Origin: Pelecanus crispus
Lineage: Eukaryota > Chordata > Aves > Pelecaniformes > Pelecanidae
Reading direction: 5' to 3'
Length of the DNA: 64,000 nucleotides
Assembly: GCF_030463565.1 (NCBI RefSeq)
Contig: NC_134649.1
Location: 32,761,044 to 32,825,043 of the forward strand
The position numbers and the translations under genes were made by a program. Under the pieces are notes generated by a model. That model was not told where the DNA came from, did not search any database, and saw nothing but the letters and a program-made list of their open reading frames with translations. This document shows, piece by piece, positions 5,721 through 26,175 of this stretch (positions within the stretch are counted from its first letter, which is position 1; every line of letters starts with the position of its first letter).

Positions 5721-8205
5721 TGTAGAGCCCACAAGTCCAAGAGGTGTCTCACTGGGGAGGGCAGGTGGGTGAGCGGCTGTGCCCGTGGGTGGAGGAATGA
5801 GATGCTGGAGAGCCAAGGGGAAGTGGGCTTTGCTGTGATGGTCACTTTTCTGCTGGCACTTTGAGCCCCCTGTTTTTTTGGGAGGGGGGTGTTTGTGCAC
5901 ATGTGGCTGAACTTGTAGTGAAGGAGCCATGAGTCACGGCCATTTCCAGGTGCTCCAGTTTTGCTCATGGTGCTGGCAGGAGTTGGTGGCTTTGTCGGGC
6001 TGTGACTGCTGCTAGCTGCTGTGACATCCTTTAGATATATAACTGAAGTGTGCTTATATAAATATATGTAATTTTCTTGTTCAGCCAAATAGGGTTGGAA
6101 CTCGGGCCCCTCTCTCCTCCCATGTGGGGAGGGAGGTCTGGAGGGACCTGGGCATCTTGGGCAGCCCAGCCTCAAGCCAACCTCTTCCCATCCGGCTGCC
6201 TGGGCCCCGCGGGGGGGAGGATCTGCCTGTCTACTCCTTCATCGCCTGCCCTGCCAAATCAGTGCCTCATTAATCACCAGGGCCTGATGACTTTCTCGAA
6301 CCCGGCATGACCCCGTGCTGGGATGCTGCTTGTCCCCCCAGCAGTGCCGGCTGTCCATGAGGCGAGCGTGATCTCACTTTATGCCCCATGTCCTGCCCCT
6401 GTCCGCCCTGCAAATGTTTTCCTGTGGCTGCTGCCACCTCTCATCGTTTCCTCCGCGCAAGCCGGCTCGGAAACAAGCTGCTGACGAAAGCTGTAATGAG
6501 AGTGAGTAGTGCGGTGTGTCCTGCCAGCACTTCGGCTTGCGGGGGACGAGGCTCTGGGACTTTTGCCCATTGACCTGTAGGGGCCCCAACCCCAGGAGGG
6601 GCGGATCGTGGTCGCCTCGGGGGGGACTGGGTGGCTGCGCAGGGTGTTATGGCTCAGCGAGGTTAGACAAGGATGTGGCTGTGGCTCGCCGGCATTGTGA
6701 GCATCTCCGTGTCCAGCGGGGCCACCCCAGTCCCCCTCCTGCTGCTCATGTGGCAGGACTGGGCCTGCAGCCCCTGGCCCAGGGCGGAGGTGGGTGCCAA
6801 CCTCCCAGCCTGGCCCCGCAGCCACTCCGTTCCCAAGCCAAGCACCTTGCCTAGATCTGTCCAGAGTGAGCAGATGTGACTAATTCCCCATTATCCGGCA
6901 TCCACGAGGGATTCACAGCCGCCCAGCTGCCCACGTGGGACAGCTCACCTGCTTGGCTTGCCCTGGCCACTGCCCACCTCTGCTGCCCCGCTGGCGTGGC
7001 AAAGCCATGCGGGGCTCTCGTGCCTGGCTGGGAATGGCTTAACATCATCTTGTGGTCAGCAGGATGAGATGGGAGAGGGGAGGCTGGATGTGGCCAGCTG
7101 CCCCCTTCCAAAATCCAGGGTCTTCCCTGTGGGAAGGGAGGAGGGAAACCGAGGTGGGCGATGCCGAGCCCTCCTGAGGGGATGGCAGTGAGAAGCTGCG
7201 TTGCGTTGAGGACTTCCAGCCCTCCCAGCAGTGGAGAGCTGTGACCCCTTCAGCGCATAAGGCCACGAAGGATGGAAAATTTTAGGCATTTGTGCTGCCG
7301 GTGAAGGGAGCCTGTTTACTGCCTGGAGGGGAAGGGCAGTGCCCGCCGGCGCTGGGATTTCTTGGCTCCCTGCAATCTCTCCCAAGGGTTTGGCAGCCAA
7401 CACCCCACCAGTTGCCGACCTTCCCTGTCCCTTTCCCAGCTGGTGCCTGGCGTTGCCCGCAGGCCGGGCCGAGCTGTGGGGTGCAGCCTGGGTTGAGACC
7501 GTCCGGCTGGGACACCATGCCCATCCTCGGTGGTACTGTCACCCTCATGGTGGGAACTTTGCCGCGAAAGCTAGCACTCGAGTGGGTCCCGCTAACTGGA
7601 GCCATCTGCGGGTCCCCGTGGCCCTCGGCTTGCGCCACCGGCACTGGGGGCCGGCACCGAACAATGCCGGGCTTGGTGCTCCCCCCTGCTCCCTGGGGAG
7701 CCGGCAGGCAGTCGGGGAGCGCTTCCGCAGATTCAGCCCTGTTTCCTTCCCCCGCCAGCCCCGGCACACCCTCGCGCTCTGGCCCCGGCGCTTCCTCCGT
7801 GGGAGCACCCTGATGGCCCCCAGCCCACGGGGGCCAGCCCTGGCCAGAGCAGGCAGGGCACAGGCAGGACACGGGGACGGCCACACTGCCAGTCCCTGAG
7901 CCCTGCCTGTCCCACTGCCCGCCCGGGGGGACTCGCCGGAGCCTCGGCGGTGCACCGGGAAGGAAGCCCCCCCGGTCCTGCTGCGCCTGCGGCCCCCCTT
8001 GTGCCCCCCCCCCGGGCAGGAAACCCGCGGGGCCACGGCTGAGTCAGCAGCACCGACTGCCCCGGCCCCGCACAGGACGTCCTGCCCAGCACAGAACTGC
8101 CCCGGGGTCAGCACCGCCCTGGGGACACGGCTGTTCTGGGGACACCACCATAGCAGGGACATCGCCATCCTGGGGCACAGCCCCGCTCCGGGGACACTGC
8201 TGCCC
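5721..8205. other. TUSC2-HYAL2 intergenic stretch, no gene seen
   Basis: This GC-rich interval has several medium-length open frames on both strands, but none resembles a known protein, and they lack consistent splice or start signals. A short TATATAAATATATG stretch occurs around 6053-6068. I see no RNA gene or transposon remnant here. Confidence 0.5.
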
Positions 8206-8209
8206 TGAG

Positions 8210-8950
8210 GACATCACCCTTCTGGGGCCACCACCGTCCTGGGGACGCCACCACTTCCATGATGCTGGGGACACCGTTATCCCGCAGCCGCCAGCATTTT
8301 AGGGTCACCACTGTCCCGGGGCCACCACCACCCTGGGGACGCCACCACTTCCATGATGCTGGGGACACCGTTATCCCGCAGCCGCCAGCATTTTAGGGTC
8401 ACCACTGTCCCGGGGCCACCACCGTCCTGGGGACGCCACCACTTCCATGATGCTGGGGACACCATTATCCCGCGGCCGCCAGCATTTTAGGGTCACCACT
8501 GTCCCGGGGCCACCACCGTCCTGGGGACGCCACCACTTCCATGATGCTGGGGACACCATTATCCCGCGGCCGCCAGCGTTTTAGGGTCACCACTGTCCCG
8601 GGACCACCACTGTCCCGGGGCCACCACCACCCTGGGGACGCCACCACTTCCATGATGCTGGGGACACCGTTATCCCGCAGCCGCCAGCATTTTAGGGTCA
8701 CCACTGTCCCGGGGCCACCACCGTCCTGGGGACGCCACCACTTCCATGATGCTGGGGACACCATTATCCCGCGGCCGCCAGCGTTTTAGGGTCACCACTG
8801 TCCCGGGACCACCACTGTCCCGGGGCCACCACCACCCTGGGGACGCCACCACTTCCATGATGCTGGGGACACCGTTATCCCGCAGCCGCCAGCATTTTAG
8901 GGTCACCACTGTCCCGGGGCCACCACCGTCCTGGGGACACCGTCTCAGGG
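8210..8950. repeat. Minisatellite, seven units of 94 or 111 bp
   Basis: A tandem array recurs with the landmark CCACTTCCATGATGCTGG at 8251, 8345, 8439, 8533, 8644, 8738 and 8849, so spacings are 94, 94, 94, 111, 94 and 111 bp. The longer units carry an extra 17-bp copy of the CCACTGTCCCGGGACCA type. Units also alternate between ...CCGCAGCCGCCAGCATTTT and ...CCGCGGCCGCCAGCGTTTT, showing a higher-order 94+111 arrangement in the right half. Flanks on the left (8150-8210) are decayed versions of the GGGGACACC motif. The array stays open in several frames only because its unit has few stops; it is not a gene. Confidence 0.95.
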
Positions 8951-16689: not shown

Positions 16690-16861
16690 TTGCTTCTGCT
16701 TGGGCTGTGGGTGGTGAAATCGGAACTTTGCTGTGCAAAGAGGACGGGAAAACAGGGAAAGGTTTATTGTCCAAAGAGTTTATTACCAACTCTACTAGGC
16801 TGTTGTTTCTTGACAACTCTGGAAAAAAGACTGGAAAACCCTAAGCTACGAGAACTACGAA
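16690..16861 (-). pseudogene. Diverged left remnant of the HSF-like repeat unit
   Basis: This fragment resembles two separate parts of the neighbouring unit joined together. Its GCTGTGCAAAGAGGAC...GGTTTATTGTCCAAAGAG section matches about 18049-18132, which includes the unit's polyadenylation signal. It then continues directly as GACTGGAAAACCCTAAGC, matching the sequence from about 18785. The roughly 650 bp between these points in the unit, which contain exon 2 of the HSF-like gene, are absent. Divergence is much higher than between the two full copies, so it derives from an older duplication. Confidence 0.7.
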
Positions 16862-17170
16862 AACAGAACTCTCTTCCTGTTTGCTGCCCGTTTCTTCTCT
16901 AGGCAGAGAAGGGCTCTGCCATTTGGAGAGCACTGCTTCTGCAAGGGAATAGGCGTGCGCCCAGGCGATGCTCCCCCGCCGGATTTCAGCAGCCTCCCAG
17001 GGGCTGCTCTGTAGGATCCGCTGGAAGTAAACCTCTAGGAAGGCTGTGCAAAGGAAACGGAAGGAACGGGAGGTGCGCACCCCCCCTTTCCTTGGTTCGG
17101 TTCCTCTGCTTCTCTTTGCTCCCTCAAATGTGGGACCAAACGCAGCGAAATCGATGCCGCTCTGTAAAGC
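16841..17170 (-). CDS. Unidentified open frame in copy A (no ATG)
   Basis: On the - strand a frame is open for 110 codons between a TAA at 17171-17173 and a stop below 16841. It has no ATG; if real it would be an internal or terminal exon. The central part (residues such as FLCTAFLEVYFQRILQS and AWAHAYSLAEAVLSKW) has the alternating hydrophobic pattern of two amphipathic helices, which is unlike random GC-rich translation. It lies downstream of the HSF-like gene on the same strand. I do not recognise a family. The last residues differ between copies A and B because the duplication breakpoint cuts the frame. Coding status is doubtful. Confidence 0.25.
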   Translation of the reverse strand, partial: ALQSGIDFAAFGPTFEGAKRSRGTEPRKGGVRTSRSFRFLCTAFLEVYFQRILQSSPWEAAEIRRGSIAWAHAYSLAEAVLSKWQSPSLPREETGSKQEESSVFVVLVA

Positions 17171-18097
17171 TTATGAATCGGCCCCCTCTCTAGAGGATCA
17201 GGTGCTTTTTCTGTAAAGGAAAGGTCTGATCTCGAGGCGGTGGGATTCTCTTCCCTTTGGCATTTGGATCCGGCCCTGGGAGGTTTACGACCCCGTGGGC
17301 GTGAGTGTTAGGGCAGCAAAGGTGAGGACGCTAAGCGTGAGGACAGCGTGGGCAGAGCTCGGTGATGGGCGTTTGGGCAGAGCAGGGAGGGTCTCCTGGA
17401 ACTGCCGGAGCATCCCTGAAGGCCTGGCCCAGGCAGAGGCAAGGCGCAGCTCAGCTGGACTTTGCTGTTACCCTGCAGTGCTGGAAAAGGCCAGAGTCTG
17501 GCGGGGGCGGGGGCGGGGGGAAGAAAGGAGCGGAGCGAGTGGGGACGCCGGCATGACTTTGTGTCTTAAATGACAGTGAAGCTTAGTTTCTTCTTCTTTT
17601 CTTGGCCCTAAAACAAATGGAAGGCCTGGTATTTCCCTGCCGCACCCCAGTGGCCAGGGTTCGTGCTCCCCCGCTGGGGGTCGTGCACCCGCTTTGGAGC
17701 CCGGGGCCTTGGAAAAGTGAAGCGAGGAGCAATCGGCGTGTCCTGTGCCGGAGAGCACGTTGCAAAGCCAGGCGTTTGTAGCACCTGGCTCAGTAGCCGG
17801 GATGTCCCCAGGTCGGGGTTAGCGTTTTGAAAAGGAGCCATGTCATCGGGGGCGTTTTGGTCAGACCCGTGTTCCCACTTTGGTTTGCCTCTAGAGGATT
17901 TTACGCAGACGTGGGAAGCTCTCCAAGTGCGCGCAAGACCTCTGGTTTCTGAGGATCTCGGCTCGATTGCCGGGCAAAAGGATTAAAGTGCTTGTGGACC
18001 CGTGGCTTCTGCTTTGGTGGGTGAAATATAAACTCAGCCTGGGCTTTTGCTGTGCAAAGAGGACAGGACGACTGGAAAAGGTTTCTTGTCCAAACAG

Positions 18098-18103
18098 TTT
18101 ATT
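18098..18103 (-). terminator. Polyadenylation signal of HSF-like copy A
   Basis: TTTATT on the + strand is AATAAA on the gene strand, 116 bp after the stop codon, in the context GGCAATAAACTG. The diverged left remnant (16779-16784) keeps the same hexamer, so the signal is older than the recent duplication. Confidence 0.75.
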
Positions 18104-18218
18104 GCCAGCTCTGCTAGGCACCCTGCTAGGCTCTTCTTACCGACAGTATTAAGCTCTGTCTATTAACAACGCTATTAACTGGGCACCATTGACTGGCTGC
18201 CGACTGTCTGTGCTCCCG

Positions 18219-19929
18219 CTAGGACGTGCTGCGCTGGGGCCCACCTGCAGGGTTGGGTCTGCAGGTGCAGGTGGGGCAGTGGGGGAGCGCGGGGCTCTGG
18301 CCGTGGGGCGGCCTGGGCCTCGGCAGAGCCGAGGCTGCTGCCAGCACGGGCATTGCAAACCGCGGAGGAGCACGAGCAGCACGCTGGAGGCCGTCCGGGC
18401 TCTGGCTGCTGGGTGGTGATAGAAAGAAGAGGGCCAGAGGGGTGAACCCCTCGCTGCCCGCTGCTCCGGCAGGCCCTGGAAGCGTGGGAGCCGCTGCCAG
18501 TGGAGACGGATGGGCGCTGCCGAGGCCGGGAGGTGCTTCAGCCCGTCGCTTGGCGGGTGCGGTCGTCCCGGGTGGAGACGCCCGCGTGTGCCCTGCAGGC
18601 CGACCCTCTGGGCTTCTGCAGGGGTGCCTTCCCTCCGCCTCTGGTGCGTCTGGGGCTCTCCGCTTGATGCCGACTCTCCTCTTGCACTTTTCCAGCAGGT
18701 GGGGATGCTCTCTGTTAAAGGTGGGGTTGTAGTAGTAGAGTATCTAAAAAAAGCAAAGGAGAAGTGTTAGTTGCCCCCCTCCCGAGACTGGAAAACCCCA
18801 AGCTACGAGAACTAAGACTCTGAATGGCAAAAGACGAGCGTGGCTATTGGAAGGGACTCCCAGGGGCGTTGGAAACCTAAAGCTCAGGCTACAACGTTAC
18901 GTGACGCTTCCGTTCAGGCATGGCCACCCCGGGGCTTTGCCGTCTGGGAGCAGAGCAGCGTAGGTTTTCCAGAAGCGTAAGAGCTGCTTTCGAAAGCCAA
19001 ATACCCCGACTTTTCGGCAACTTCAGTGTGGCTGTGAGCGGGCAGGCAATACTCTGCTCCTCAGATGTATCTTCTCGGCACTCAGCAGGTGCCGCAGGCA
19101 GGGTTCAGGTTTGGCCCAGCAAGACACGTAGCAAAGACATCGCAAGAAATCCGGCTGCGCTGAGTCTGTCTTTCCATGTAACGGGTTCAAAGTCAGCGGA
19201 TATAAGCGAACCGTGTTTTATCCGCCTTTCTACCGGTCAGCAAGACTAACTCAAACCTTCCTGAAAGCGACCTGAGAAGAAAATTAAAACCAGGCCGCTC
19301 GCTACCACCCTCATCTCCCGTATGACAGGGCCTGACTCGATGTGAAGGCCCGTCTCTCCCCCCAGAGCGTTGTGAGCGTTGGCTGCTGTGCAGAGCAAGC
19401 GCCGTACCTGGCTGTGAGCGGAAGCTGCCGCTTCTTCCGCCAGAAATTCAGGCAGGGAGGCAGATCGCTGGAAATCCCGCGGCATTTTGGTGAATCCGTA
19501 GAGGTTCAGCTGCCGCACAAAACTCTTCATGCTCTGCGTGGCAAAAACCCGCAGAGGTCCTCCCCTGCCCAGCACCTCCTCTTTGAAGAGCTCTTCGTTG
19601 ATGGCCAGGCATTTTCCACCCTCGCTCCACCAAATGGACCGAAACCGCTCGCTTTCCACCATGTGCCAAAGCTTCTGTGGAAAGCAGAGGGACGACAGTC
19701 CATTGGCCTCGCCCACGCTCTCGCCGGAAACGGGAGGCACTCGTCTGGTCTCGTGTCCGTCACGGCCAGGTTGGGCATCCCGCTCCTCCTTTCTCGCTCG
19801 TCCGGCAGCGTCGCAGGGTGCTCTTTCCCCCTGTCCTGCAGGGCCAGCAGCAGCGGTGTCTGCCCACTGCCCTGGCTCGTGCGGAGCAGAAAGGGATGGT
19901 GTTTCTGCGGGAGACAGCTCCCTTTTCAT
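18219..19929 (-). CDS. HSFY/HSFX-type heat shock factor-like gene, copy A, two exons
   Basis: Exon 1 is 19929-19408 and exon 2 is 18743-18219, giving 348 residues. The exon 1 donor is CAG|GTACGG and the exon 2 acceptor is GCTTTTTTTAG; both exons meet in phase 0 and I found no stop in either. The HSF DNA-binding domain starts at FPQKLW (residue 83), runs through FRSIWW and the recognition helix SMKSFVRQLNLYGFTK (133-148), and finishes in exon 2 with ILYYYNPTFNREHPHLL. The rest is proline/alanine-rich without the heptad-repeat trimerisation region of HSF1-HSF4. The overall form is closest to HSFY/HSFX factors, whose mammalian members are sex-linked and germline-associated. The start is the first in-frame ATG (context ACGAAATGA). 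I infer a nuclear DNA-binding protein; target and expression are unknown. Confidence 0.85.
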
Positions 19930-20065
19930 TTCGTTTGTCCCAGCTGGACCCAAGTTTCCCTCGCTGGCCGTCGCCCTGCACAGGCAGGCCCTGTGCTGCC
20001 AGTCAGCAAGCAAAGGCCAACTGGCGCCAGCTGACCGTGGGTACCGGTGGGATACTCTGGCATGT

Positions 20066-20096
20066 CACTGTGATGCATCGTGGTGACATCACAGTG
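20066..20096. promoter_or_regulatory. Inverted repeat with CRE-like sites upstream of HSF-like copy A
   Basis: CACTGTGATG (20066-20075) and CATCACAGTG (20087-20096) are a perfect 10-bp inverted repeat with an 11-bp spacer, 137-167 bp before the ATG of the HSF-like gene. The right arm overlaps TGACATCA, which resembles a CRE/AP-1 type site, and TGACGGTGATG follows at about 20102. No TATA box is evident. A regulatory role is inferred from position and symmetry. Confidence 0.45.
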
Positions 20097-20307
20097 TGCC
20101 ATGACGGTGATGTTTGGCAATGGCGCCCTGGCAGAAGGGAGCAGCCAGAGCAGGCATTGCCGAAGAGCGCTTGTTGCTTTTCACCGCCAGAGCCACCGGT
20201 GGTGGCACTCCAGAGCCCAGAAGTCAACAAAGCTGTGTTGAACGGCTGTAGGCAATGAGAGGACCGTGCTGCGTCCCCTTGCATCCGGGAGTGCGTCCGC
20301 AGGGGAG

Positions 20308-20425
20308 GAATCACAGAATCAGTCGTGGAATCACAGAATCGGTTAGGTTGGAAAAGACCTTTAAGATCATCCAGTCCAACCGTTAGCCTAGCACTACCAA
20401 GTCCACCACTAAACCAGTTACGGCT
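20308..20425 (-). mobile_element. CR1 LINE 3' end fragment, copy A (first of two)
   Basis: GAATCACAGAATCGGTTAGG, TTGGAAAAGACCTTTAAGAT and CATCCAGTCCAACCGTTAGC are the reverse complement of a CR1 3' end. It is short and is separated from the next CR1 by about 65 bp of A/T-richer sequence. The same subfamily appears at 34298. Confidence 0.88.
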
Positions 20426-20486
20426 AGAGTAATAGCTTCATGTTTCCTGGCTGGATTATTTTTTATTGGAAGTAAAAACTAGGGCT

Positions 20487-21155
20487 CAGTAAGGTTGGAA
20501 AGGACCTCTAAGATCATCAGCGCAACGGTCAACCCAACACCACCATGCCTACTAAACCATGTCCCAGAGGGCCACGTCTACCCGTTTTTGGAGCACCTCC
20601 AGGGATGGTGACTCCACCACCTCCCTGGGCAGCCTGCTCCAACGCTTGACCACTCCTTCCGTGAAGAAATTTTTCCTAATACCCCATCTAAACCTCCCCT
20701 GGCGCAGCTTAGAGGCCATTTCCTCTCGTCCGATCGCTAACTGCTTGGAAGAGGGGGACCGACACCCACCTCCCTACAACCTCCTTTCAGCTAGTCGTAG
20801 AGAGCGACAAGGTCTCCCCTCAGCCTCCTCTTCTCCAGACTGAACAATCCCCGTTCCCTCAGCCGCTCCTCATAAGACGTGTTCTCTAGACCCTTCACCG
20901 GCTTCGTTGCCCTTCTCTGGACGCGCTCCAGCAACTCAATGTCTTTCTTGCGCTGAGGGGCCCAAAAGTGGACACAGGATCCGAGGTGTGGCCTCACCAG
21001 TGCCGAGTAGAGGGGGCCGATCACTTCCCTGCTCCTGCTGGCCACGCCTATTTCTGATACAAGCCAGGACGCTGTTGGCCGCCTTGGCCACCTGGGCACA
21101 CTGCTGGCTCATGTTCAGGCGGCCGTCGACCGACACCCCCAGGTCCTTTTCCTGA
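20487..21155 (-). mobile_element. CR1 LINE fragment with reverse-transcriptase C-terminus, copy A
   Basis: On the - strand this piece encodes a decayed end of the CR1 ORF2, including [36 protein letters not shown] and [19 protein letters not shown], followed by the 3'UTR down to the AAGGTTGGAAAGGACCTC end at about 20490. It is 5' truncated at about 21155, near a GAGGAGCGGGG junction. The remnant at 25930-26175 lacks this element, showing the site before insertion. Confidence 0.93.
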
Positions 21156-21295
21156 GGAGCGGGGATGGCGGCAGCGTTGGGCATCCCGGTGCCCCGTTTG
21201 GGAAGTTTTCCAGCTGGGCGCCTCTGACACCCGCAGAAATGGCCTTACGGTCTTTGCTGTGCTGGTGGCTCTTGAGCTCCCGCGTCTCGGCCTTT

Positions 21296-21495
21296 GGCAG
21301 AGAGTGGGGAGCAGCAGGGCTGGGGCTGCAGCCAGCGGCCGGAGTGCTGGGTTTGCGGGGTCCCTCCTCACCCAGACGTGGCGGCACCGCCCCCGTGCGT
21401 TACCCTGGCTAGGTCCCTCCTGGTCCCCCTTCTTTCCCTCTGGGTTGTCCAGCAGCATGGGGAAGCCTGTTTCCCCAGCAGAATGAAGGCAAGGG
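21296..21495. other. 200-bp spacer between copies A and B
   Basis: This segment occurs once. It may be the original continuation of the unit that copy B lost when it joined the diverged remnant at 25930. It carries no start codon or signal I recognise, but it extends the unidentified - strand frame of copy B to a stop near 21409. Confidence 0.6.
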
Positions 21496-21804
21496 AACAG
21501 AACTCTCTTCCTGTTTGCTGCCCGTTTCTTCTCTAGGCAGAGAAGGGCTCTGCCATTTGGAGAGCACTGCTTCTGCAAGGGAATAGGCGTGCGCCCAGGC
21601 GATGCTCCCCCGCCGGATTTCAGCAGCCTCCCAGGGGCTGCTCTGTAGGATCCGCTGGAAGTAAACCTCTAGGAAGGCTGTGCAAAGGAAACGGAAGGAA
21701 CGGGAGGTGCGCACCCCCCCTTTCCTTGGTTCGGTTCCTCTGCTTCTCTTTGCTCCCTCAAATGTGGGACCAAACGCAGCGAAATCGATGCCGCTCTGTA
21801 AAGC
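21409..21804 (-). CDS. Unidentified open frame in copy B (no ATG)
   Basis: This is the counterpart of the frame at 16841-17170, open for 132 codons here because the sequence beyond the duplication boundary extends it (tail with LPSFCWGNRLPHAAGQ). The helical core is identical to copy A. No ATG, no recognised family. If the gene is real, copy B is more likely to keep the ancestral 3' end because the spacer is single-copy. Confidence 0.25.
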   Translation of the reverse strand, partial: ALQSGIDFAAFGPTFEGAKRSRGTEPRKGGVRTSRSFRFLCTAFLEVYFQRILQSSPWEAAEIRRGSIAWAHAYSLAEAVLSKWQSPSLPREETGSKQEESSVPLPSFCWGNRLPHAAGQPRGKEGGPGGT

Positions 21805-22731
21805 TTATGAATCGGCCCCCTCTCTAGAGGATCAGGTGCTTTTTCTGTAAAGGAAAGGTCTGATCTCGAGGCGGTGGGATTCTCTTCCCTTTGGCATTTG
21901 GATCCGGCCCTGGGAGGTTTACGACCCCGTGGGCGTGAGTGTTAGGGCAGCAAAGGTGAGGACGCTAAGCGTGAGGACAGCGTGGGCAGAGCTCGGTGAT
22001 GGGCGTTTGGGCAGAGCAGGGAGGGTCTCCTGGAACTGCCGGAGCATCCCTGAAGGCCTGGCCCAGGCAGAGGCAAGGCGCAGCTCAGCTGGACTTTGCT
22101 GTTACCCTGCAGTGCTGGAAAAGGCCAGAGTCTGGCGGGGGCGGGGGCGGGGGGAAGAAAGGAGCGGAGCGAGTGGGGACGCCGGCATGACTTTGTGTCT
22201 TAAATGACAGTGAAGCTTAGTTTCTTCTTCTTTTCTTGGCCCTAAAACAAATGGAAGGCCTGGTATTTCCCTGCCGCACCCCAGTGGCCAGGGTTCGTGC
22301 TCCCCCGCTGGGGGTCGTGCACCCGCTTTGGAGCCCGGGGCCTTGGAAAAGTGAAGCGAGGAGCAATCGGCGTGTCCTGTGCCGGAGAGCACGTTGCAAA
22401 GCCAGGCGTTTGTAGCACCTGGCTCAGTAGCCGGGATGTCCCCAGGTCGGGGTTAGCGTTTTGAAAAGGAGCCATGTCATCGGGGGCGTTTTGGTCAGAC
22501 CCGTGTTCCCACTTTGGTTTGCCTCTAGAGGATTTTACGCAGACGTGGGAAGCTCTCCAAGTGCGCGCAAGACCTCTGGTTTCTGAGGATCTCGGCTCGA
22601 TTGCCGGGCAAAAGGATTAAAGTGCTTGTGGACCCGTGGCTTCTGCTTTGGTGGGTGAAATATAAACTCAGCCTGGGCTTTTGCTGTGCAAAGAGGACAG
22701 GACGACTGGAAAAGGTTTCTTGTCCAAACAG

Positions 22732-22737
22732 TTTATT
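22732..22737 (-). terminator. Polyadenylation signal of HSF-like copy B
   Basis: AATAAA on the gene strand, identical in position and context to copy A, 116 bp after the stop codon of the copy B gene. Confidence 0.75.
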
Positions 22738-22852
22738 GCCAGCTCTGCTAGGCACCCTGCTAGGCTCTTCTTACCGACAGTATTAAGCTCTGTCTATTAA
22801 CAACGCTATTAACTGGGCACCATTGACTGGCTGCCGACTGTCTGTGCTCCCG

Positions 22853-24563
22853 CTAGGACGTGCTGCGCTGGGGCCCACCTGCAGGGTTGGGTCTGCAGGT
22901 GCAGGTGGGGCAGTGGGGGAGCGCGGGGCTCTGGCCGTGGGGCGGCCTGGGCCTCGGCAGAGCCGAGGCTGCTGCCAGCACGGGCATTGCAAACCGCGGA
23001 GGAGCACGAGCAGCACGCTGGAGGCCGTCCGGGCTCTGGCTGCTGGGTGGTGATAGAAAGAAGAGGGCCAGAGGGGTGAACCCCTCGCTGCCCGCTGCTC
23101 CGGCAGGCCCTGGAAGCGTGGGAGCCGCTGCCAGTGGAGACGGATGGGCGCTGCCGAGGCCGGGAGGTGCTTCAGCCCGTCGCTTGGCGGGTGCGGTCGT
23201 CCCGGGTGGAGACGCCCGCGTGTGCCCTGCAGGCCGACCCTCTGGGCTTCTGCAGGGGTGCCTTCCCTCCGCCTCTGGTGCGTCTGGGGCTCTCCGCTTG
23301 ATGCCGACTCTCCTCTTGCACTTTTCCAGCAGGTGGGGATGCTCTCTGTTAAAGGTGGGGTTGTAGTAGTAGAGTATCTAAAAAAAGCAAAGGAGAAGTG
23401 TTAGTTGCCCCCCTCCCGAGACTGGAAAACCCCAAGCTACGAGAACTAAGACTCTGAATGGCAAAAGACGAGCGTGGCTATTGGAAGGGACTCCCAGGGG
23501 CGTTGGAAACCTAAAGCTCAGGCTACAACGTTACGTGACGCTTCCGTTCAGGCATGGCCACCCCGGGGCTTTGCCGTCTGGGAGCAGAGCAGCGTAGGTT
23601 TTCCAGAAGCGTAAGAGCTGCTTTCGAAAGCCAAATACCCCGACTTTTCGGCAACTTCAGTGTGGCTGTGAGCGGGCAGGCAATACTCTGCTCCTCAGAT
23701 GTATCTTCTCGGCACTCAGCAGGTGCCGCAGGCAGGGTTCAGGTTTGGCCCAGCAAGACACGTAGCAAAGACATCGCAAGAAATCCGGCTGCGCTGAGTC
23801 TGTCTTTCCATGTAACGGGTTCAAAGTCAGCGGATATAAGCGAACCGTGTTTTATCCGCCTTTCTACCGGTCAGCAAGACTAACTCAAACCTTCCTGAAA
23901 GCGACCTGAGAAGAAAATTAAAACCAGGCCGCTCGCTACCACCCTCATCTCCCGTATGACAGGGCCTGACTCGATGTGAAGGCCCGTCTCTCCCCCCAGA
24001 GCGTTGTGAGCGTTGGCTGCTGTGCAGAGCAAGCGCCGTACCTGGCTGTGAGCGGAAGCTGCCGCTTCTTCCGCCAGAAATTCAGGCAGGGAGGCAGATC
24101 GCTGGAAATCCCGCGGCATTTTGGTGAATCCGTAGAGGTTCAGCTGCCGCACAAAACTCTTCATGCTCTGCGTGGCAAAAACCCGCAGAGGTCCTCCCCT
24201 GCCCAGCACCTCCTCTTTGAAGAGCTCTTCGTTGATGGCCAGGCATTTTCCACCCTCGCTCCACCAAATGGACCGAAACCGCTCGCTTTCCACCATGTGC
24301 CAAAGCTTCTGTGGAAAGCAGAGGGACGACAGTCCATTGGCCTCGCCCACGCTCTCGCCGGAAACGGGAGGCACTCGTCTGGTCTCGTGTCCGTCACGGC
24401 CAGGTTGGGCATCCCGCTCCTCCTTTCTCGCTCGTCCGGCAGCGTCGCAGGGTGCTCTTTCCCCCTGTCCTGCAGGGCCAGCAGCAGCGGTGTCTGCCCA
24501 CTGCCCTGGCTCGTGCGGAGCAGAAAGGGATGGTGTTTCTGCGGGAGACAGCTCCCTTTTCAT
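22853..24563 (-). CDS. HSFY/HSFX-type heat shock factor-like gene, copy B, two exons
   Basis: Exon 1 is 24563-24042 and exon 2 is 23377-22853. I saw no difference from copy A in either exon, the 664-bp intron or the splice sites, so the predicted 348-residue protein is the same: an HSF DNA-binding domain at about residues 83-200 followed by a proline/alanine-rich tail without a heptad-repeat oligomerisation region. It faces the same way as copy A (head to tail). Identity this high means either a very recent duplication, ongoing gene conversion or an assembly artefact; the sequence alone cannot separate these. Both copies look equally able to be expressed, since each keeps the same upstream region and polyadenylation signal. 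Confidence 0.84.
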
Positions 24564-24699
24564 TTCGTTTGTCCCAGCTGGACCCAAGTTTCCCTCGCTG
24601 GCCGTCGCCCTGCACAGGCAGGCCCTGTGCTGCCAGTCAGCAAGCAAAGGCCAACTGGCGCCAGCTGACCGTGGGTACCGGTGGGATACTCTGGCATGT

Positions 24700-24730
24700 C
24701 ACTGTGATGCATCGTGGTGACATCACAGTG
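24700..24730. promoter_or_regulatory. Inverted repeat with CRE-like sites upstream of HSF-like copy B
   Basis: The same perfect 10-bp inverted repeat as in copy A (CACTGTGATG ... CATCACAGTG), at the same distance from the start codon. Confidence 0.45.
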
Positions 24731-24941
24731 TGCCATGACGGTGATGTTTGGCAATGGCGCCCTGGCAGAAGGGAGCAGCCAGAGCAGGCATTGCCGAAGA
24801 GCGCTTGTTGCTTTTCACCGCCAGAGCCACCGGTGGTGGCACTCCAGAGCCCAGAAGTCAACAAAGCTGTGTTGAACGGCTGTAGGCAATGAGAGGACCG
24901 TGCTGCGTCCCCTTGCATCCGGGAGTGCGTCCGCAGGGGAG

Positions 24942-25059
24942 GAATCACAGAATCAGTCGTGGAATCACAGAATCGGTTAGGTTGGAAAAGACCTTTAAGA
25001 TCATCCAGTCCAACCGTTAGCCTAGCACTACCAAGTCCACCACTAAACCAGTTACGGCT
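24942..25059 (-). mobile_element. CR1 LINE 3' end fragment, copy B (first of two)
   Basis: Copy of the short CR1 end at 20308-20425, carried along by the tandem duplication, not a separate insertion. Confidence 0.88.
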
Positions 25060-25120
25060 AGAGTAATAGCTTCATGTTTCCTGGCTGGATTATTTTTTAT
25101 TGGAAGTAAAAACTAGGGCT

Positions 25121-25789
25121 CAGTAAGGTTGGAAAGGACCTCTAAGATCATCAGCGCAACGGTCAACCCAACACCACCATGCCTACTAAACCATGTCCCA
25201 GAGGGCCACGTCTACCCGTTTTTGGAGCACCTCCAGGGATGGTGACTCCACCACCTCCCTGGGCAGCCTGCTCCAACGCTTGACCACTCCTTCCGTGAAG
25301 AAATTTTTCCTAATACCCCATCTAAACCTCCCCTGGCGCAGCTTAGAGGCCATTTCCTCTCGTCCGATCGCTAACTACTTGGAAGAGGGGGACCGACACC
25401 CACCTCCCTACAACCTCCTTTCAGCTAGTCGTAGAGAGCGACAAGGTCTCCCCTCAGCCTCCTCTTCTCCAGACTGAACAATCCCCGTTCCCTCAGCCGC
25501 TCCTCATAAGACATGTTCTCTAGACCCTTCACCGGCTTCGTTGCCCTTCTCTGGACGCGCTCCAGCAACTCAATGTCTTTCTTGCGCTGAGGGGCCCAAA
25601 AGTGGACACAGGATCCGAGGTGTGGCCTCACCAGTGCCGAGTAGAGGGGGCCGATCACTTCCCTGCTCCTGCTGGCCACGCCTATTTCTGATACAAGCCA
25701 GGACGCTGTTGGCCGCCTTGGCCACCTGGGCACACTGCTGGCTCATGTTCAGGCGGCCGTCGACCGACACCCCCAGGTCCTTTTCCTGA
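25121..25789 (-). mobile_element. CR1 LINE fragment with reverse-transcriptase C-terminus, copy B
   Basis: Copy of the CR1 at 20487-21155, duplicated with the unit. The only two substitutions I noticed between the tandem copies, at 25377 and 25513, fall in this element. Confidence 0.93.
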
Positions 25790-25929
25790 GGAGCGGGGAT
25801 GGCGGCAGCGTTGGGCATCCCGGTGCCCCGTTTGGGAAGTTTTCCAGCTGGGCGCCTCTGACACCCGCAGAAATGGCCTTACGGTCTTTGCTGTGCTGGT
25901 GGCTCTTGAGCTCCCGCGTCTCGGCCTTT

Positions 25930-26175
25930 TGCTTTTCACTGCCAGAGCCACCGGTGGTGGCACTCCAGAGCCCAGAAATCAATAAAGCTGTGTTGAACGG
26001 CTGTAGGCAATGAGAGGACCGTGCTGCACCCCGTTGCATCCAGGAGTGGGTTCGCAGGGGAGTAGCTGGGATTTCGGCAGCGTTGGGCATCCCGTGCCCC
26101 GTTTGGGAAGTTGTCCAGCCTGGCATCTCTGACACCTGCAGAAATGTCCTTATGGTCTTTGCTGTCTTATTGATG
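25930..26175 (-). pseudogene. Diverged right remnant of the HSF-like unit, lacking the CR1
   Basis: The first part (TTGCTTTTCACTGCCAGAGC ... GTTCGCAGGGGAG) matches about 20174-20308 of copy A with scattered substitutions. The second part (GGCAGCGTTGGGCATCCC ... GTCTTTGCTGT) matches about 21165-21270. In the full copies these are separated by the roughly 850-bp CR1 block; here they are adjacent across GAGTAGCTGGGATTTC. This is therefore an old paralogous piece of the upstream (5') region of the HSF-like gene that never received the CR1 insertions. It contains no HSF coding sequence. Confidence 0.8.

What the first reader, a model, noticed from the sequence alone, without database searches (positions are those of the whole stretch)
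18219..19929. Intact two-exon HSFY/HSFX-like gene whose DNA-binding domain is split by an intron
The recognition helix (SMKSFVRQLNLYGFTK) is in exon 1 and the closing strand and helix of the domain (LYYYNPTFNREHPHLL) are in exon 2. The frame rejoins exactly through CAG|GTACGG and TTTTTTTAG, and exon 2 stays open for 174 codons to a TAG with an AATAAA 116 bp later. This combination argues for a working gene, not a fossil. The protein lacks the heptad-repeat oligomerisation region of HSF1-HSF4, so it would bind DNA differently from classical HSFs. Mammalian relatives are sex-linked and testis-associated; an autosomal-looking avian gene beside HYAL1 is unexpected.
Basis: partly seen in the sequence, partly recalled or inferred. 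Interest (0 to 1): 0.8.

Follow-up and report, generated by a model that had tools for sequence, protein, structure and literature searches.

The report
Duplicated HSFY/HSFX-like gene in a bird
A bird chromosome carries two identical, apparently working copies of a heat-shock-factor-like gene best known from mammalian sex chromosomes, part of a scattered family whose other members have mostly decayed or lost the key DNA-reading residue.

Summary
The five Z loci are all broken or partial.

The protein has one HSF DNA-binding domain (DBD; Pfam 86 bits, cut-off 22). It groups with HSFY/HSFX rather than HSF5 or HSF1/2 (human HSFX/HSFY letters recalled). On the branch leading to the window's group the DBD evolved at dN/dS 0.18 (1 rejected, p=1.5e-5), while its N-terminus (1.14) and mid-exon 2 (0.90) look neutral. 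Four of 15 scorable copies, the window's group, keep the recognition-helix Arg.

Best reading: a working avian HSFY/HSFX-type transcription factor, recently duplicated. The intron-split DBD is not odd: cattle and pig HSFY also have two exons. Expression was not testable.

The parts
19408..19929 (-). copy 1, exon 1: 174 codons, N-terminus and most of the HSF DNA-binding domain
19486..19533 (-). copy 1, recognition helix SMKSFVRQLNLYGFTK; its Arg (residue 139) is the codon 19515-19513
   Evidence: role of this Arg in HSF1/2/4 from PMC11059408 section 18
18744..19407 (-). copy 1, phase-0 intron of 664 nt, donor GTACGG, acceptor TTTTTTTAG, branch-point-like CTAAC at 18770-18766
18219..18743 (-). 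copy 1, exon 2: end of the DNA-binding domain, Pro/Ala-rich tail, stop TAG
18098..18103 (-). copy 1, AATAAA polyadenylation-like signal
24042..24563 (-). copy 2, exon 1, identical to copy 1
23378..24041 (-). copy 2, intron, identical to copy 1
22853..23377 (-). copy 2, exon 2, identical to copy 1
16862..21298 (.). first tandem unit (4,437 bp) holding copy 1
   Evidence: 3 differences from the second unit (20743, 20879, 21296), none in the gene
21496..25932 (.). second tandem unit holding copy 2; 197 bp of other sequence (21299-21495) lie between the units
16727..16860 (.). relic matching the gene's 3' flank (86%, 74 bp) and intron end (94%, 33 bp)
25933..26165 (.). relic matching the gene's 5' flank (93%, 130 bp) and another part of the unit (88%, 107 bp)

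Best explanation
A working gene of HSFY/HSFX type in a bird, present as two identical head-to-tail copies next to hyaluronidase genes on a contig that is not the Z. Two exons are spliced to give a 348-residue protein with one winged-helix HSF DNA-binding domain that keeps the SFVRQ recognition helix, so it most likely reads single or paired GAA units. It has no recognised oligomerisation repeat and a Pro/Ala-rich, poorly constrained tail, so it most likely binds as a monomer or with partners rather than as the classical trimer. By analogy with mammalian HSFY it would act in the testis. Shown: gene anatomy, DBD, selection on the DBD, Arg kept, copy number and contigs. Inferred: splicing in vivo, DNA target, monomeric binding, testis role.
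For: Anatomy with splice signals. Pfam DBD over the full profile. DBD dN/dS 0.18 on the branch to the window's group against 0.47 elsewhere, 1 rejected p=1.5e-5, holding with one taxon dropped (0.25), another topology (0.17) and the exon-1 core only (0.18; p vs 1 = 2.1e-5, 1.3e-5, 0.004). On the same branch N-terminus 1.14 and mid-exon 2 0.90 are not different from 1, an inner control. In pairwise counts the DBD has 1 of 369 (A-C) and 2 of 369 (A-D) differences against 24 and 34 of 664 in the intron. Arg kept in 4 of 15 scorable copies, exactly the window's group. Donor GTAC in 10 of 12 copies scanned and the CTNAC/T-run/TAG acceptor in 10 of 12. HSFY/HSFX grouping with 99% ultrafast bootstrap.
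Against: No RNA evidence. The window group's DBD also has few synonymous changes (A-C 1, A-D 0, on about 83 sites; N-terminus 5 and 7.5 on about 64), so gene conversion or DNA-level constraint may explain part of its recent uniformity; A-D has 2 amino-acid and 0 silent changes in the DBD. Raw A-H nucleotide differences in the DBD are not fewer than in the intron (p=0.19). The better fit of two rates over one is modest (p=0.016; 0.067 with H dropped; 0.11 for the exon-1 core). Human HSFX1, HSFY1, HSF1 and HSF2 letters were recalled. The two copies could be a false duplication of the assembly. The structure prediction of exon 1 was uninformative (pLDDT 43.7).
Confidence: 0.78

Rival explanations
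1. A recently dead gene: selected until the last duplications, now silent copies that have not yet collected damage.
For: Copies A and B differ by 3 bases in 4,437 and A-C by 3.6% in the intron, so there was little time to break; copy D, 93% identical, lost the homologous upstream region about 30 bp before the ATG and has a replaced tail, yet its frames are still open; at least ten other loci are broken or partial.
Against: A and C both keep every splice signal, both frames and the polyA signal; the DBD is nearly free of changes where intron and N-terminus are not.
Confidence: 0.15
2. A member of the HSF5 lineage rather than HSFY/HSFX.
For: The best solved-structure match by sequence is human HSF5 (8zys, E 9.3e-13); HSF5 also lacks heptad repeats (PMC11059408).
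Against: The bird has a separate HSF5 at C12:12789210 (67% to human HSF5, DBD in one uninterrupted frame). The window DBD is 35% identical to human HSF5 but 56% over 126 ungapped residues to recalled HSFY1, including the stretch between recognition helix and last strand. No HSFY or HSFX structure appeared among the 18 sequences that one search returned, so cannot favour them.
Confidence: 0.04
3. The second copy is an assembly artefact and there is one gene here.
For: Adjacent units 99.93% identical are a known pattern of false duplication (recalled).
Against: The two units have different flanks and 197 bp of unrelated sequence between them; relics of the unit lie on both sides, as in an old tandem array. 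A third near-identical copy lies 1.45 Mb away (97%).
Confidence: 0.25

Closest known systems
[quoted passage not shown]
   Same: HSF DBD; two exons with one intron (cattle, pig: PMC3049798, PMC4460688, passages); no heptad repeats reported for it in what I read; multi-copy with many dead copies; 56% identity over 126 ungapped residues with recalled human HSFY1.
   Different: This copy is not on a sex chromosome; tail and N-terminus do not align usefully with recalled HSFY1; expression unknown.
HSFX (mammalian X-linked homologue)
   Same: DBD of the same clade; recalled HSFX1 aligns from the N-terminal side through the DBD (33% over 310 columns with gaps).
   Different: Not on a sex chromosome in this copy; relatives are on the avian Z, which is not homologous to the mammalian X-conserved region (recalled).
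HSF5
   Same: HSF DBD with SF[VI]RQ recognition helix and no heptad repeats (PMC11059408).
   Different: HSF5 has an insertion before the recognition helix and, in this bird, an unsplit DBD; only about 35% identity.
HSF1-HSF4
   Same: HSF DBD and SFVRQ helix.
   Different: No Pfam match beyond the DBD; four other HSF loci of this genome match profile 20-63 in a single stretch, which suggests other intron positions; this gene's first exon covers 1-69.

Membership tests
HSF superfamily | HSF-type DNA-binding domain over the curated cut-off | tested here: met
   Pfam PF00447, 86.1 bits against 22, profile 1-100 of 100
HSF superfamily | recognition-helix Arg that contacts G of GAA | tested here: met
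   R139 in SFVRQ; role in HSF1/2/4 from PMC11059408 section 18
HSFY/HSFX | DBD clusters with HSFX/HSFY, apart from HSF5 and HSF1/2 | tested here: inconclusive
   99% ultrafast bootstrap, but human HSFX1, HSFY1, HSF1 and HSF2 letters were recalled, not fetched; bird monophyly only 76%, bird plus HSFY1 only 62%
HSFY/HSFX | two coding exons, one intron | tested here: met
   cattle and pig HSFY in PMC3049798 and PMC4460688. The exact intron position in mammalian HSFY was not seen
HSFY/HSFX | sex-chromosome location (in mammals) | tested here: not met
   The window's contig C7 is not the contig with the DM-domain cluster (C46, taken as Z); five relatives are on C46. This is a trait of mammalian copies, not of the protein family
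HSFY/HSFX | testis-biased expression | not testable with these tools
   no RNA data held
HSF1-HSF4 | HR-A/B heptad repeats after the DBD | tested here: not met
   no second Pfam match; 31 Pro in the 143 aa after the DBD; best 35-aa window there has 7 Pro (crude scan)
HSF5 | insertion between helix 2 and recognition helix | tested here: not met
   alignment: HSF5 rows carry about 14 extra residues there, this family none

The most novel reading that the evidence does not exclude
Birds keep an HSFX/HSFY gene family of their own, amplified without regard to sex linkage, with at least two selected lineages that split in function: the window's group keeps the GAA-reading arginine, while a pair on another contig (C16) is under equally strong DBD constraint (dN/dS 0.20) although that arginine is leucine, which would make it an HSF-fold protein that no longer reads heat shock elements. 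The Z copies are the graveyard.
Probability: 0.4. Interest if true: 0.62.

Novelty: new member of a known kind. Interest (0 to 1): 0.5.

Why it matters
[quoted passage not shown] A selected, intron-bearing avian member would show that this branch of the HSF family predates mammalian sex chromosomes and amplifies recurrently in genomes where it is not sex-linked. That gives a comparison for the open question of whether HSFY amplification is driven by the Y or by the gene itself. The arginine split between two selected lineages gives a direct DNA-binding test.

Tried and rejected
Open length as evidence: rejected, since overlapping frames of similar length exist. Retrocopy origin of the family: rejected, since the intron region aligns in most copies. 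HSF5 membership: rejected as above. Sequence search against solved structures gave HSF5 first, but returned no HSFY/HSFX entry. AlphaFold2 on exon 1 with 7 rows: mean pLDDT 43.7, pTM 0.27, not used; no fold search was run. IQ-TREE codon runs: topology used, dN/dS not obtained from its output, so a codon model of my own was written. One search failed on a program option and was repeated corrected. Pfam scan of ten further long frames, 5172-57647 in the window's right part and one at 6382, gave no family. The five members of alignment A1 could not be used to search the genome. Paper searches (listings only, partly capped, e.g. 20 of 66 and 15 of 266) showed no title or abstract start on an avian HSFY/HSFX family; subscription journals and database annotation of bird genomes were not searched, and I recall that automatic annotation names such genes in birds.

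Full report
Observation. On the minus strand the window holds ATG at 19929, a 522-nt exon 1 ending CAG at 19408, donor GTACGG, a 664-nt phase-0 intron with CTAAC and a T-run before TTTTTTTAG, and exon 2 from 18743 to the TAG ending at 18219, with AATAAA 116 nt on. The spliced 348-residue product matches Pfam HSF_DNA-bind over the whole profile at 86.1 bits (cut-off 22); exon 1 alone gives profile 1-69. Open length by itself is weak evidence, since other frames here are open for 205-232 codons.

A second gene, identical over its whole length, lies 4,634 bp away at 24563-22853. The repeated unit is 4,437 bp with 3 differences, none in the gene. Between the units are 197 bp of other sequence; relics of the gene's 3' and 5' flanks lie left and right of the pair, so the locus looks like the remains of an older array. 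Whether the pair is real or a false duplication of the assembly cannot be told without reads. Upstream on the + strand lie TUSC2 and two hyaluronidase genes (Pfam).

The family in the genome. The window's assembly (1.31 Gb, 310 contigs; the window is C7:32761044-32825043) was searched with the Pfam family, each exon as protein, the gene as DNA and its downstream part as DNA. I count 17 loci: A and B (window), C (C7:34.230 Mb, 98% in exon 1), D (C7:33.975, 93%), E (C7:34.226, 44%), F and G (C16:4.23 and 4.33, opposite strands, about 99 kb apart), H (C2), I, J, K, P, Q (C46), L and M (C13), N and O (C3). Weaker hits (for example on C1, C5, C19, C35) were left out, and the tool calls its counts lower bounds. 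C46 carries three DM-domain matches within 100 kb, the DMRT1-3-2 cluster that sits on the Z in birds (recalled), so I take C46 as Z.

State of the copies. A, B and C are open in both exons. D is open, but exon 2 ends after 151 codons in a replaced tail, and its homology to A begins only about 30 bp before the ATG. F and G are open in both exons but lack an ATG at the homologous start; the first in-frame ATG is at residue 36 of the open frame. E is open in exon 1, but no match to the start of exon 2 was found. H, I, J, L, M, N and O have stops or frame breaks; K has an open DBD part in exon 1 but stops in exon 2; P and Q are fragments with stops. So 5 of 5 Z loci are broken or partial. The intron aligns in most copies, the donor GTAC was found in 10 of 12 copies scanned (not in J and L in the span scanned), and an acceptor of the same make in 10 of 12 (not in E and K), so the family spread as DNA, not as retrocopies. 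In one search the segment downstream of the window gene matches upstream of Z copies at 65.54 and 57.88 Mb, which fits spread from a head-to-tail array.

Selection. Codon alignment of the DBD (121 codons, 13 of 17 loci; B identical to A, and O, P, Q left out). With my own MG-type codon model one dN/dS for all gives 0.43. The branch to A/C/D gives 0.18 against 0.47 elsewhere; 1 is rejected (p=1.5e-5) and two rates fit better than one (p=0.016). With H dropped: 0.25, p vs 1 2.1e-5, two rates p=0.067. With the protein-tree topology: 0.17, 1.3e-5, 0.019. With the exon-1 core only: 0.18, 0.004, 0.11. Eight branches were tested in all: the F/G branch gives 0.20 (p=2.3e-6 against 1), J 0.29 (p=0.017), and E 0.68, H 0.47, I 0.81, K 0.67, N 0.50 are not different from 1. 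So the two lineages with open frames in both exons stand out, and the damaged ones, J apart, do not. On the A/C/D branch the N-terminus (56 codons, 9 taxa) gives 1.14 and mid-exon 2 (99 codons, 8 taxa) 0.90, neither different from 1. A C-terminal motif (44 codons, 7 taxa) has 0.42 family-wide; this was not tested against 1.

Counter-evidence in the pairwise counts. A-C and A-D have 1 and 2 differences in 369 DBD sites against 24 and 34 of 664 in the intron (Fisher p=4e-4 and 3e-5). But silent changes in the DBD are also few (1 and 0), so gene conversion or DNA-level constraint may add to the recent uniformity. Over the whole coding part Nei-Gojobori dN/dS is 0.34 (A-C), 0.71 (A-D) and 0.55 (A-H); for the DBD of A-H it is 0.25. 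A-H raw differences in the DBD are not fewer than in the intron (p=0.19), and the N-terminus has more (p=3e-5).

The reading residue. [quoted passage not shown] passages of PMC5205663 on R71). The window gene has SFVRQ with Arg at residue 139. Of 15 copies where the site can be scored, 4 keep Arg (A, B, C, D); E, L, M, O have His, I, J, K, N Cys, F, G Leu, H Gln; P and Q were not scored (B by identity with A). F/G is therefore a selected lineage without the reading residue.

Relationship. Sequence search of solved structures gives HSF5 first (8zys, 9.3e-13), then HSF2, HSF1 and HSF4, with no HSFY/HSFX entry among the 18. Against recalled human HSFY1 the window protein has 70 of 126 residues identical without a gap; recalled HSFX1 33% over 310 columns; human HSF5 35% over 126 columns. 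In an LG tree of 12 of the 17 loci, the bird family, HSFY1 and HSFX1 group at 99% ultrafast bootstrap apart from human and bird HSF5 and HSF1/2; bird monophyly has 76% and bird plus HSFY1 62%. The bird's own HSF5 is at C12:12789210, 67% identical to human HSF5, DBD unsplit.

Literature. Cattle and pig HSFY have two exons and one intron, are amplified, and are expressed in testis (PMC3049798, PMC4460688; passages). A 2025 review says high-confidence HSFX/HSFY orthologues are known only in mammals (PMC12366260; passages and section 5). PMC7674692 (section 17) found HSFY to be the only testis-specific Y gene that kept the expression pattern inferred for the proto-sex chromosomes from chicken, platypus and Anolis; the passages I saw do not say which outgroup held an orthologue. 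So a non-therian orthologue was already in use there.

Verdict. The anatomy is real, the gene is very likely a working HSFY/HSFX-type gene of a bird, and there are two copies here. The split domain is ordinary for this kind of gene. The less ordinary parts are the wide scatter over non-Z contigs and the Z, the decay of every Z locus found, and the loss of the DNA-reading arginine in all scorable copies outside the window's group.

Noticed in passing
G000:C16:4231815-4233619 and 4329573-4331377 (L013, L014): Near-identical family members on opposite strands about 99 kb apart, DBD under constraint (dN/dS 0.20) but with Leu in place of the DNA-reading Arg and no ATG at the homologous start. Whether they sit in a larger inverted repeat was not checked.
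   Followed up: partly
G000:C46, 57.87, 58.85, 65.22, 65.54 and 66.43 Mb: Five relatives on the contig taken as Z, all with stops, frame breaks or missing parts.
   Followed up: partly
G000:C13:9.55 and 10.25 Mb (L022, L021): Two near-identical broken copies 0.7 Mb apart on one contig.
   Followed up: no
window 8224-8941: Tandem repeat of 94-, 111- and 205-bp periods, GC-rich, upstream of the first hyaluronidase gene.
   Followed up: no
G000:C12:12789210-12789599 (L005, L027): The bird's HSF5, DBD in one uninterrupted frame, 67% identical to human HSF5.
   Followed up: partly
family-wide, window 18249-18375 in copy 1: C-terminal motif around VLAAASALPRPRPPHGQSPALPHCPTC recurs in paralogues on C16, C46 and C3 although the sequence before it does not align well; function unknown.
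   Followed up: partly
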